From the NCBI GenBank assembly GCA_944324465.1, contig CALUWI010000013.1, positions 1 through 64,000 of the forward strand: a DNA stretch of 64,000 nucleotides, read 5' to 3'. This document shows positions 6,493-10,804 of the stretch, piece by piece (within the stretch, counting starts at the first letter, position 1; each line of letters begins with the position of its first letter). Source of the DNA: an uncultured Mucispirillum sp. GTDB taxonomy: Bacteria; Chrysiogenota; Deferribacteres; Deferribacterales; Mucispirillaceae. The notes beneath the pieces are model-generated. The model ran no database searches. It saw only the letters and a list, made by a program, of their open reading frames with translations, and had not been told where the DNA came from. A program made the position numbers and the translations under genes.

Positions 6493-7380
6493 ATGGAAGA
6501 CAGATTACTTGAAGAAATTAAAAGAAAACTGATTAATATTATGCCGGAAGAATGTGAAATTGATGCAGGCTTTAATGGTATAAAATTTTACAGAAGAAAT
6601 GATACAGAAAAAACTCATATCTGTATACAGTGCCCCTGCATTATTTTTGTTGCAAACGGAGAAAAACATACCCACATAAGCAGTGAAAATTTTATATTTA
6701 AAAAAGGGTATTATAATATTACATATATTGACTACCCAGTTTCTTCTCATTTTTATAACATCTCAGAAGAAAACCCATACCTTTCTGTATATATTCCTGT
6801 AGATAATAAAGTGATTACTGAAATAATAAAAGATATTAACCAGCTTCCTGCAGTAAATTTTAAAGGTATTTCTGAAAGCAAAGCAGACGATAAGCTGCTT
6901 GAAGCATACAGCAGACTTATTGATTTATATAATAAGCCTGATGAAATAAACTTTATGGCACAGTTAATTATTAAAGAAATATATTACAGAATATTAAACG
7001 GTCCTGTTGGAGCAGATTTAAAAGCATTATACACTTTTGGCTCACAAAGCAATAAAATATACCAGGCTGTAGAATTTATTAAAAATAACTACAAGGAATA
7101 CCTGCATATAGATGATATTGCATCAAAAGTAAATATGGCACCATCTACTTTTTTTAGAAACTTTAAAGCGATTACAATGATGAGCCCATTACAGTATCAA
7201 AAAAGATTAAGACTTTATGAAGCACAAAGGTTAATGCTTGCTGAAAGTATTACAGCATCTGATGCAGCATATAATGTAGGTTATGAAAGTATTACACAGT
7301 TTACAAGAGAATATAAAAAATTATTTCATTCATCCCCTGCAAGAAATATAAAAGAAATAATTGCAGGCATATCAAAGTAA
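6493..7380 (+). CDS. AraC family transcriptional regulator
   Basis: A 295-residue regulator. Residues about 20-170 form an AraC N-terminal cupin-like domain of the type found next to aldehyde-reductase genes. Residues about 190-290 carry two helix-turn-helix motifs: HIDDIASKVNMAPSTFFRNFK, then ITASDAAYNVGYESITQFTREYKKLF. It is divergently placed against the aldo/keto reductase with a 110-bp shared gap. This resembles the YqhC-yqhD/dkgA arrangement in enterobacteria, so control of the neighbouring reductase by reactive aldehydes is a reasonable inference. The start codon has no strong Shine-Dalgarno. Confidence 0.9.
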   Translation: MEDRLLEEIKRKLINIMPEECEIDAGFNGIKFYRRNDTEKTHICIQCPCIIFVANGEKHTHISSENFIFKKGYYNITYIDYPVSSHFYNISEENPYLSVYIPVDNKVITEIIKDINQLPAVNFKGISESKADDKLLEAYSRLIDLYNKPDEINFMAQLIIKEIYYRILNGPVGADLKALYTFGSQSNKIYQAVEFIKNNYKEYLHIDDIASKVNMAPSTFFRNFKAITMMSPLQYQKRLRLYEAQRLMLAESITASDAAYNVGYESITQFTREYKKLFHSSPARNIKEIIAGISK

Positions 7381-7510
7381 AGAAAATATATAAGCAAGAC
7401 ATAAATAGTAATATTAGCTTATTAATATTACAAATTTCAAAATATAAAATTAGTATTATGCAGGAATATGAAACAATTATAAATTATAATTAAATATATT
7501 GTAAACACAT

Positions 7511-9871
7511 TTATACACTTTCACCATAAGGTAATAATTTAATATATTTTTCCATATATTCCCAGTCTGGTTCTTTTTGACTATTAGCAGGTAGAGTAAT
7601 TTTTTCCATTTTTATTAAGTTTATTATTCTTGCTCGACCATAAGAATATCTAAAAATCTCTTGATTAAGAATCGTACATATAAACATTGCATTGTATTTA
7701 TTTAACTTTTTATGCCTTAATGTATATACTTTTACACCTGCAACAAAGTTTTCCATTTGATAAAATGCATATCTTCCTTCAGCACCAATAGTAATACAAT
7801 TACCTTTAATCTGTTTAGATATATCTATATCAACAAAACATTCTACCCCGTTATTATTAGCAGTTCTTGATACAAATGGTACTTCTCCTGGCAACATATC
7901 ATCTATAATAAGATGTTTTGTTGTTTCACAGTGAAAAATCTCTCCTACTGTAAAAGTATGCCAATTATGCATATCTATATTATCTATAACCTGACCAATA
8001 TTATTTTTAATTTGTACAATATCCCTATATCTTATTTGATAGGATAAAAAATCCCTTATTGTTTGTTCAAAATTTTTGTTAGTTAATTTAGAATAATCAG
8101 TATCCATATATGCTTCACATAACCACTCATCACTTGATGTAATACATTTTAATGCAGTTTTACCAGTAATTTCTTGATTTTTTCTATATAAATCCAACCA
8201 TTCTGCTTTTATAGATTTCCATTTATTATTAAAATCTACTCTTCCCAAATTTTTCTTTTTAATAAAACCATCATCTTTATAATACCCAAAAAATGTAGCT
8301 AAAGAACTATTGTGGGGAGTATGTGCCTCCCAAACCATTACACAAACATTAGTACCTACTGGATAAAAAATATCATCAGGCATAGAGAAAACAGCTTTTA
8401 ATGTATGGCTTGAGAGCAAGTTTTTTCTTTCTTCTTTAAACTTAGTTCCAATAGCGCAGGACATAGGAACTACAACAACTCCAATACCTCTTGGTGTTAA
8501 TAAATCAAGCATTTTTTTTACAAAACTAAGCTCTACTTCTGATTTTTGACTGTAAGGAGGATTTAACAAACCTACAGAAAAATTTACATTATTAGGTACT
8601 TTAAATTTAAAACAATCTTCATTGTAAATATTTGATTGTCCATCACCTCTTAAAATCATATTAGTGATTGCAATACTGTATATATTTGATTGAAACTCAA
8701 TGCCATAAAGTTGAGTATCTTTTATTTTTTTTATTTGTTCTACATTTTTTGCTTTTGCAATTAAATGTTTCATTGCTGATACTAAAAAACTCCCTGTTCC
8801 ACAAGCAATATCAATAACAGTATCATTTATATTTAAGTTTGCTAATTCACACATAAAGTCACATAAGTGTTCAGGAGTAAGAACTATGCCTAATTCATTA
8901 CCTGCATTCCCTGCAGTATATTTAATAAATTCATGATAGAATATTCCTAATGCATCTTGATGAGAATTAGAATCATTTATCATAGGAATAATAACTAATT
9001 CTAACTGTTTTAAAAAATATATTAAAGAACCTGCTTTATGAGGAGATAATTCTAGCATTTTTTGATAATTCTTAATTAGTCTCGCATTTGCACATATCTG
9101 CTGTATTTTTTTATCTGGAATTTTATTGTCTTTAAGAACTATTTCAACAGAAGTAATAAGTGTCTCCACCAATGTAGAATTGTCTGCTGAAATATTATAT
9201 GTTTTAGCAAAAAAAACATTTTGTAAAGCTAATAAACAACTAGCAATAAACATAATTCTTTCTTGCGGTATAATATTTAATTCACGCATAAGATTATTAT
9301 ACTTATTTGCCAACTGTTTAATCTCTTCAACAGAAAACTTTTTTACTAATTTTTTACTTTCCAAAAGATTTAAATAGTTAATTGGAGATAGTAAAATATC
9401 TTTTGTTTTCTCAAGTTCTGTGTAAGATACTTCTCCTTGTTTCCAATAATAAGCATTTGCAGAATAATCATCTATCTTTGTTCCGCTAACAGCAACAGCA
9501 ATAACATTAAATTTATCTTTCAGATATTTTGCATAATATAAAACACCATCAACAGCATATTTTTGTGGATGGGATAAATCTATTGAAATATGGTCTTTTT
9601 TATTTCGTTTACATTCAACCACTAATAGTGTATTAGGATTTTCATCATATGTAATGATATATTCTGGTTTTGCAGTCCCTTTTGTAGTAGTAGAAAAATC
9701 TGTTAATGCACATTCTTTTGGTTTACCCCCAGCTTTATCTAAACAATCCTTAATTTCTACCAATGTTTTATCAACTGATTGAGGGTAAACGTAAAATTTA
9801 TCATTCTGACCAATATCAAATTGCATTAACTTTCTTGTAAGACTTTCTGCAAATTGTTCATTTTGTACCAT
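7511..9871 (-). CDS. Single-chain restriction-modification enzyme (nuclease, N6-adenine methylase, target-recognition domain)
   Basis: A 786-residue protein that appears to combine cutting, methylation and recognition. Residues about 40-130 resemble the N-terminal nuclease domain of type I HsdR: a PE at 69-70 and VVECK at 84-88 give a PD-(D/E)xK-like centre, with Glu in place of the usual first Asp. Residues about 305-560 are an N6-adenine methylase of the HsdM type, with motif I DIACGTGSF at 354-362 and motif IV NPPY at 437-440. Residues about 660-780 read as one HsdS-like target-recognition domain. No separate R, M or S gene is adjacent. This is the layout of type IIG enzymes. The gene is more AT-rich than its neighbours, consistent with transfer. 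Confidence 0.85.
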   Translation of the reverse strand: MVQNEQFAESLTRKLMQFDIGQNDKFYVYPQSVDKTLVEIKDCLDKAGGKPKECALTDFSTTTKGTAKPEYIITYDENPNTLLVVECKRNKKDHISIDLSHPQKYAVDGVLYYAKYLKDKFNVIAVAVSGTKIDDYSANAYYWKQGEVSYTELEKTKDILLSPINYLNLLESKKLVKKFSVEEIKQLANKYNNLMRELNIIPQERIMFIASCLLALQNVFFAKTYNISADNSTLVETLITSVEIVLKDNKIPDKKIQQICANARLIKNYQKMLELSPHKAGSLIYFLKQLELVIIPMINDSNSHQDALGIFYHEFIKYTAGNAGNELGIVLTPEHLCDFMCELANLNINDTVIDIACGTGSFLVSAMKHLIAKAKNVEQIKKIKDTQLYGIEFQSNIYSIAITNMILRGDGQSNIYNEDCFKFKVPNNVNFSVGLLNPPYSQKSEVELSFVKKMLDLLTPRGIGVVVVPMSCAIGTKFKEERKNLLSSHTLKAVFSMPDDIFYPVGTNVCVMVWEAHTPHNSSLATFFGYYKDDGFIKKKNLGRVDFNNKWKSIKAEWLDLYRKNQEITGKTALKCITSSDEWLCEAYMDTDYSKLTNKNFEQTIRDFLSYQIRYRDIVQIKNNIGQVIDNIDMHNWHTFTVGEIFHCETTKHLIIDDMLPGEVPFVSRTANNNGVECFVDIDISKQIKGNCITIGAEGRYAFYQMENFVAGVKVYTLRHKKLNKYNAMFICTILNQEIFRYSYGRARIINLIKMEKITLPANSQKEPDWEYMEKYIKLLPYGESV

Positions 9872-10057
9872 TTATATTATCCTTAAAAGTTCATTAAATT
9901 ATTTATGACTATTCTAAGGTAAAAAATAACTAAAAGCAATATATTTATTAATTATACAATCACTTTGGTATAAAAAGAAATAATATTATGGGTAAACCCT
10001 GTTTATTAAGCATAAATTTGGATTTACCCCAAATTATTGCAGGCTTATATTTATATA

Positions 10058-10804
10058 TTACTTATTGAAATATTTTGCGTATATTTTATCGTATGTGCCG
10101 TTTTCTTTTAATGTTTTAAGAGCATTATTTATTTCATCTAATAATGCAGTATTATCTTTAGGAAGAGCAATAGAATATTCTTCTTCAGCTAAAGCAGTAT
10201 CAAGCACTTTAATACCTTCGTTATTTGCAACATATTCTTTTGCTGGCTCCATATCTAATACAGTTGCATCTACTTTGCCAGCAGTAAGAGCCATAATAGC
10301 CTGGCCTGTTGCTTCATATCTTGTGATAGATGATGTATCTTTATACATATCAGTTACTACCATATCACCAGTGTAACCAATTACAACACCGATTTTTTTA
10401 CCTTTTAAGTCTTCAAATTTTTGGATATCTGAATTTTCTGGCACAATAACAGCCTGTTTTGATACAAAATAAGGTGTGCTGAAATTAACATGCTGGCGTC
10501 TTTCGTTAGTTGCAGTCATACCAGAAATAATGCAGTTAATTTTACCTGTCTGCATAGCGATTAAAAGGCTGTCAAAAGCCATGTTTTTAAACTCTACTTT
10601 TTTGCCTGTGATTTTAGAAATTTCACTCATTAAATCTACATCAAAGCCAACAATATTGCCCTGCTCAATGTATTCAAATGGTGGAAATTCAGCATTTGTT
10701 CCAACAATTAATGTATCAGCAGATGCTGTTTCGCTTTTTTTACAGCCAAAAAGCATAACTAATGATAATACTGATACTAAAACTAATAACAATATTTTTT
10801 TCAT
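10058..10804 (-). CDS. Amino-acid ABC transporter substrate-binding lipoprotein (family 3)
   Basis: Periplasmic binding protein of the polar amino-acid type. The N-terminal lipobox LFGC predicts lipid attachment at Cys21. The mature domain has the family signature GFDVDLMSEI at about residues 57-66 and NFSTPYF around residue 105. The 248-residue length is normal. No permease or ATPase gene is beside it, so its partners must lie elsewhere, or it may serve another role such as sensing. GGAGAG precedes the ATG. The ligand cannot be read from sequence. Confidence 0.9.
   Translation of the reverse strand: MKKILLLVLVSVLSLVMLFGCKKSETASADTLIVGTNAEFPPFEYIEQGNIVGFDVDLMSEISKITGKKVEFKNMAFDSLLIAMQTGKINCIISGMTATNERRQHVNFSTPYFVSKQAVIVPENSDIQKFEDLKGKKIGVVIGYTGDMVVTDMYKDTSSITRYEATGQAIMALTAGKVDATVLDMEPAKEYVANNEGIKVLDTALAEEEYSIALPKDNTALLDEINNALKTLKENGTYDKIYAKYFNK

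What the first reader, a model, noticed from the sequence alone, without database searches (positions are those of the whole stretch)
7511..9871. Nuclease, methylase and one recognition domain in a single polypeptide
An HsdR-like PD-(D/E)xK segment (ECK at 86-88, PE at 69-70), an HsdM core and a single HsdS-like TRD are all in 786 residues, with no separate subunit. A solitary enzyme of this type both cuts and protects, and recognises one half-site. The Asp-to-Glu change in the nuclease motif may alter or weaken cleavage.
Basis: partly seen in the sequence, partly recalled or inferred. Interest (0 to 1): 0.5.

Follow-up and report, generated by a model that had tools for sequence, protein, structure and literature searches.

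The report
Single-chain BcgI-type restriction-modification enzyme
One gene encodes a protein that both cuts foreign DNA and chemically marks its own, an uncommon but already known form of bacterial restriction enzyme that probably works as a pair of identical chains.

Summary
Window 7511-9871, minus strand, is one open reading frame of 786 aa with an N-terminal PD-(D/E)xK nuclease, an HsdM-like adenine methylase and one HsdS-like target-recognition domain (TRD). No partner gene lies beside it. It is a BcgI-type (Type IIB/IIG) enzyme whose RM subunit is fused to half an S subunit, the architecture reviews give for HaeIV. Its closest relative found (58% identity over residues 2-614) is split, with a separate two-TRD S gene. 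In 80 viral-contig loci, 20 are fused single-TRD chains; on a tree of 65 relatives the fused state needs at least 13 changes, so this form arises repeatedly. The feared Asp-to-Glu change is normal for the family: the position is Glu in 46 and Asp in 18 of 64 rows, and the E-x-K pair is kept in 64 of 64. The gene is a 2,642-bp insertion in a terminator hairpin that is empty in three same-genus genomes and holds other genes in two. Ordinary, correctly spotted, not new.

The parts
7511..9871 (-). BcgI-type single-chain RM~TRD gene, 786 aa
   Evidence: Open frame; PADLOC REase_MTase_IIG 4.9e-88 over residues 36-613
9332..9871 (-). N-terminal PD-(D/E)xK nuclease domain (residues 1-180)
   Evidence: AlphaFold pLDDT 91.2; best rows of the structural second look: HsdR fragment 3h1t Z 9.0, BpuSI 3s1s Z 8.1; BsaXI 8w2p Z 6.7
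9662..9667 (-). PE (P69-E70), first catalytic acid
   Evidence: E 46, D 18 of 64 rows; invariant E in 22 nearer rows
9608..9616 (-). ECK (E86-C87-K88), E-x-K of the nuclease
   Evidence: E and K in 64 of 64 rows; lies at the end of a predicted strand 81-88
8288..8962 (-). HsdM-like N6-adenine methylase core (residues 304-528)
   Evidence: Pfam PF02384 1.6e-29
8792..8812 (-). AdoMet-binding motif DIACGTG (residues 354-360)
   Evidence: D354 and G358 invariant in A1 and A2
8552..8563 (-). catalytic NPPY (residues 437-440)
   Evidence: all four invariant in A1; N, P, P invariant in A2
7538..7969 (-). single target-recognition domain (residues 635-778)
   Evidence: Pfam Methylase_S 1.5e-11; same stretch at 2.3e-11 in the genome search; 55% identical over 150 aa to TRD1 of the split S protein of L086
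7535..7564 (-). C-terminal helix (residues 770-779) with motif PDWEYMEKYIK around it, likely pairing helix
   Evidence: predicted helix; a like motif follows each TRD of the two-TRD S protein of L084; the pairing role is inferred
7396..10037 (.). inserted segment of 2,642 bp that carries the gene, placed inside a terminator hairpin
   Evidence: comparison with the empty sites of G003, G008, G009

Best explanation
It is a BcgI-type (Type IIB/IIG) restriction-modification enzyme in which the RM subunit has been fused to half of an S subunit. Shown: nuclease, adenine methylase and a single S-type TRD in one intact chain, catalytic motifs kept, no partner gene adjacent. Inferred: two chains pair through their TRD helices, as half-S subunits do, and read an interrupted palindrome (about 3-4 bp, a gap of 5-8 bp, and the inverted repeat). 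Each chain methylates one adenine in its half, so both strands of host sites are protected. Unmethylated sites are cut on both sides by the N-terminal nuclease domains, probably only when two sites are bridged. It was gained by this lineage as a small insertion and acts as a solitary defence gene.
For: Domains. Homology to BcgI-type systems: relatives are annotated bcgIA/bcgIB or N-6 DNA methylase plus subunit S; profile match to RM.BsaXI 4.1e-31 and to an HsdS TRD 3.6e-9. Closest split relative L084: RM 58% over residues 2-614, with a separate 336-aa two-TRD S. Pairing precedents: HaeIV is listed as 2R~gammaM~[GAY], 7/13 GAY N5 RTC 14/9 (PMC3874165 passages; PMC4081073 passages); HpyUM032XIII, a BcgI-like RM with a one-TRD S1, methylates CYA N7 TRG, and CYA N7 TTC when S1 and S2 are fused (PMC4450513 passages). 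The fused M~half-S structure 7eew aligns to model residues 184-786, Z 30.1 but rmsd 24.6 over 498 residues, so its domains are placed differently; PMC12429846 says that two such fusions assemble into one complex (passage; that 7eew is the same protein rests on the entry title and strain name). Horizontal gain: three empty sites in the genus; GC 27.6% against 32.4% for the window.
Against: No methylome, cleavage or oligomer data. A dimer could not be modelled here. BsaXI has Asp (D90) where this chain has Glu, and PMC11997821 calls its four catalytic residues absolutely conserved across the larger Type IIB family (passage); my equation of E70 with D90 is by motif only. The nuclease fold match by Foldseek alone is weak (best E 0.015); it rests on the second look, where some unrelated rows also score 5 to 6.
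Confidence: 0.78

Rival explanations
1. It acts as a monomer like the MmeI or Eco57I group: one TRD reads a short continuous asymmetric site, one strand is methylated and cleavage is on one side.
For: Single chain with one TRD, the usual description of Type IIG enzymes (PMC6158711 passage). MmeI 5hr4 aligns over model residues 175-777, Z 20.8.
Against: The TRD is of the BcgI/HsdS kind, and single TRDs of that kind work in pairs where tested. MmeI scores well below type I M subunits and 7eew in the same table.
Confidence: 0.13
2. It is an orphan methylase whose nuclease has decayed.
For: Glu instead of Asp in the PD motif; an 11-residue segment before the motif that the other 14 rows of A1 lack.
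Against: Glu is the majority state (46 of 64); an extra segment at that place is shared with L084, L085 and L086; E86 and K88 are kept and the domain folds with high confidence.
Confidence: 0.06
3. It needs an S subunit or second TRD supplied by another locus and reads an asymmetric site, as in BcgI.
For: The genome has two other loci with S domains (C14 with a 396-aa frame, C3 with a 245-aa protein).
Against: C3 sits beside its own HsdM and C14 lies close to an HsdM-like frame. Searching the genome with the whole protein found no further TRD-only relative at E 0.001. The assembly is about 97.5% complete, so a missing gene is not excluded.
Confidence: 0.03

Closest known systems
HaeIV (single-chain Type IIB/IIG)
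   Same: Nuclease, gamma-class methylase and one TRD in one chain, solitary; described as a homodimer with a symmetric bipartite site (PMC3874165, PMC4081073 passages).
BcgI / Sau42I family (RM + S, Type IIB)
   Same: RM body homologous over its length, with PE...ExK in Sau42I as here.
   Different: These have a separate S subunit with two TRDs; here one TRD is fused.
HpyUM032XIII (BcgI-like RM + half-S)
   Same: One TRD per functional unit; palindromic gapped motif (PMC4450513 passages).
   Different: The half-S is a separate gene there; sequences were not compared.
7eew, Vibrio vulnificus M~half-S methyltransferase
   Same: Methylase with a single TRD in one chain; aligns to model residues 184-786.
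   Different: A type I methyltransferase without the nuclease domain.
RM.BsaXI (solved Type IIB)
   Same: Nuclease and methylase domains align: model 1-566, Z 28.4, rmsd 15.2 over 486 residues; profile 4.1e-31.
   Different: BsaXI has a separate two-TRD S subunit, plus knob and paddle domains (PMC11997821 passages and section 29).

Membership tests
BcgI-type Type IIB/IIG enzymes | N-terminal PD-(D/E)xK nuclease domain | tested here: met
   Motif residues conserved; domain model and structural second look
BcgI-type Type IIB/IIG enzymes | gamma-class N6-adenine methylase (NPPY) in the same chain | tested here: met
BcgI-type Type IIB/IIG enzymes | RM body homologous to BcgI-type RM proteins | tested here: met
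   58% to L084 RM; Sau42I RM in A1; PADLOC models; BcgI itself was not in hand
BcgI-type Type IIB/IIG enzymes (two-chain form) | separate S subunit with two TRDs | tested here: not met
   One Methylase_S stretch, fused, no neighbouring S gene
BcgI-type Type IIB/IIG enzymes | bipartite recognition site, cleavage on both sides | not testable with these tools
   Needs methylome and cleavage assays
HaeIV-like single-chain enzymes | R~M~one TRD in a single chain, no separate S | tested here: met
HaeIV-like single-chain enzymes | homodimer on a symmetric gapped site | not testable with these tools
   Inferred from precedents only
[quoted passage not shown]
   One TRD; 786 aa
MmeI-like monomeric Type IIG enzymes | sequence and fold relation to MmeI, TRD included | tested here: inconclusive
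   Pfam MmeI_Mtase below its cut-off (25 against 27 bits); structural Z 20.8

The most novel reading that the evidence does not exclude
BcgI-type enzymes switch again and again between a two-chain form that reads asymmetric sites and a one-chain, one-TRD form that reads palindromes. If so, simple deletion or fusion of an S gene is a recurrent route by which new Type II specificities arise, and the window enzyme is one recognisable product, next to a split relative at 58% identity.
Probability: 0.5. Interest if true: 0.4.

Novelty: new member of a known kind. Interest (0 to 1): 0.2.

Why it matters
It adds a clean example of a compact, solitary cut-and-protect enzyme, with a predicted gapped palindromic site. 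Together with its relatives it gives a graded series (RM with two-TRD S; RM with half-S; RM fused to half-S) on which the change from asymmetric to palindromic recognition can be tested directly. The insertion site shows how defence genes turn over at one place in this genus.

Tried and rejected
Rejected: Glu as decay of the nuclease. Rejected as unlikely: partner S subunit in trans.

Led nowhere: viral-contig scans with the single protein and with the TRD alone found no relative; the alignment scan did. Searches of 226 genomes of three other phyla at E 1e-45 found nothing, which shows little. The half-site could not be guessed from TRD similarity: the best match to the gonococcal S protein is 25%; one search gave nothing above 42% in the eight rows listed of 29 records. 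No long repeat tract that would suggest phase variation: the only runs found are one T8 and two A8.

The tree used 65 rows: 47 of the 80 viral loci (copies, cut or N-terminally incomplete RM frames and loci without a visible S were dropped), 17 plasmid, phage or genome loci, and the window. It is a quick tree with SH-aLRT support only; L162 lacks the nuclease region, and two rows have long branches. P0006 and the more distant same-order RM proteins were left out, as was the L078 row.

Full report
Observation. The frame at 7511-9871 is on the minus strand, 786 codons, uninterrupted. It carries PE at 69-70 and ECK at 86-88, an HsdM-like core (PF02384, 1.6e-29, residues 304-528) and one HsdS-type TRD (PF01420, 1.5e-11, residues 635-778). 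PADLOC names it a Type IIG restriction enzyme-methyltransferase (4.9e-88). The AlphaFold model of the chain is good (pLDDT 88.6, pTM 0.84). The nuclease domain alone is also good (pLDDT 91.2); in the structural second look its best rows are an HsdR fragment (Z 9.0), BpuSI (8.1), an uncharacterised restriction-endonuclease-like protein (6.7) and BsaXI (6.7), with DrdV and Holliday-junction resolvases further down and some unrelated rows among them. Foldseek alone was weak for this domain (best E 0.015).

Family. Plasmid and phage relatives are mostly two-gene systems, RM followed by S, annotated in one phage as bcgIA and bcgIB. A profile of 32 sequences matches RM.BsaXI (4.1e-31) and an HsdS TRD (3.6e-9) among solved structures. 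The alignment-based scan of viral contigs gave 80 loci. By frame and TRD matching, 20 of these 80 have RM and one TRD in a single chain (719 to 861 aa; five share one score and look like copies, and two more pair up), six have RM followed by a half-length S gene (L111, L133, L141, L148, L149, L159), one has two half-length S genes (L128), and most of the rest have a full two-TRD S; several are cut by contig ends.

Closest relative. L084, a viral contig, has an RM protein 58% identical over residues 2-614 and a separate 336-aa S with two TRDs (two Methylase_S stretches). L086 RM is 47% identical. The TRD of the window protein is 55% identical over 150 residues to the first TRD of L086's S, but 40% to the second TRD of L084's S. 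Body and TRD thus have different nearest kin, as expected where TRDs are exchanged.

Tree. On the RM body (residues 100-600) of 65 sequences, the window protein groups with split L084 (SH-aLRT 99) and then split L086 (99). The fused label (18 rows) needs 13 changes, at least 10 of them forced by well-supported branches; shuffled labels need 15.9 on average, and 20 of 500 shuffles were as low. So fusion is scattered, with mild clustering, and the window gene is one of many separate gains or losses. Direction is not shown by this count.

The Asp-to-Glu point. In the 65-row alignment 64 rows cover the motif: E 46 and D 18 at position 70; E86 and K88 in all 64. By architecture: fused 11 PE, 5 PD, 1 LD and one without the region; half-S 8 PE, 3 PD; full S 27 PE, 5 LD, 3 PD, 1 VD. 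In 22 nearer rows P69, E70, E86 and K88 are invariant. The phi-42 row is taken to be Sau42I, described as a phage-encoded restriction-modification system (PMC6532042, passages). Against this, BsaXI has Asp there and its authors call the site conserved across the Type IIB family (PMC11997821 passages).

Mechanism. Reviews state that HaeIV has the same layout, a symmetric gapped site and acts as a homodimer (PMC3874165 and PMC4081073 passages). In HpyUM032XIII a BcgI-like RM with a one-TRD S methylates CYA N7 TRG, while the artificially joined two-TRD S gives CYA N7 TTC (PMC4450513 passages). For type I systems the same is reported for half-S proteins (PMC3874165 passages; PMC2877798 abstract) and for engineered M~half-S fusions (PMC6158711 passages). 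The best Foldseek hit of the whole model is 7eew, a Vibrio methyltransferase with its recognition part in the same chain. Hence the inference of a homodimer reading a palindromic gapped site. Two-site bridging and bilateral cutting are general for Type IIB enzymes (PMC1892151 passages), with BplI as the stated exception to bridging.

Setting. The neighbours, an AraC-type regulator and an ABC substrate-binding protein, face each other. In G003, G008 and G009 they are separated by a short stretch with a hairpin. In the window the hairpin is split, with 2,642 bp (7396-10037) between its halves. In G006 the same place holds a CfrBI-like nuclease gene and an N4/N6 methylase gene, in G001 a Gp49-like toxin and HTH antitoxin pair. 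The gene's GC is 27.6% against 32.4% for the window. No near relative was found elsewhere in the genus at comparable identity, apart from a contig-end fragment in G008 (38 residues, 79%).

Verdict. A correctly noticed, ordinary enzyme of a known but less common form. The main correction is that the Glu is the family norm and that the site is probably a palindrome read by a pair.

Noticed in passing
window 7380-10060; L062, L063, L064, L065, L066: Insertion hot spot between an AraC-type regulator and an ABC substrate-binding gene: empty in three same-genus genomes, a CfrBI-like restriction system in G006, a Gp49/HTH toxin-antitoxin pair in G001, the IIG enzyme here. The target is a terminator-like hairpin.
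   Followed up: partly
L128 5835-6961; L083 3105-4138: BcgI-like loci with two separate half-length S genes after one RM gene, as in HpyUM032XIII.
   Followed up: no
L165 1480-3486 (G000:C3): Second restriction locus of the host genome: HsdM with a single-TRD 245-aa S protein, beside a 494-aa ATPase-like frame.
   Followed up: no
L029 2971-5469: Mycoplasma phage MGyu-2021a carries a fused single-TRD enzyme (832 aa, genetic code 4) annotated as hypothetical protein.
   Followed up: partly
L070 1120-3417 (G009:C155): A distant single-chain relative (765 aa, 27%) in the same genus, at another locus; its C-terminal recognition part barely resembles the BcgI-type TRDs (best blastp 8e-4).
   Followed up: no
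L067 5666-5779 (G008:C129): Last 38 residues of a close homologue (79%) at a contig end, in a genome whose AraC site is empty, so the gene can sit elsewhere.
   Followed up: partly
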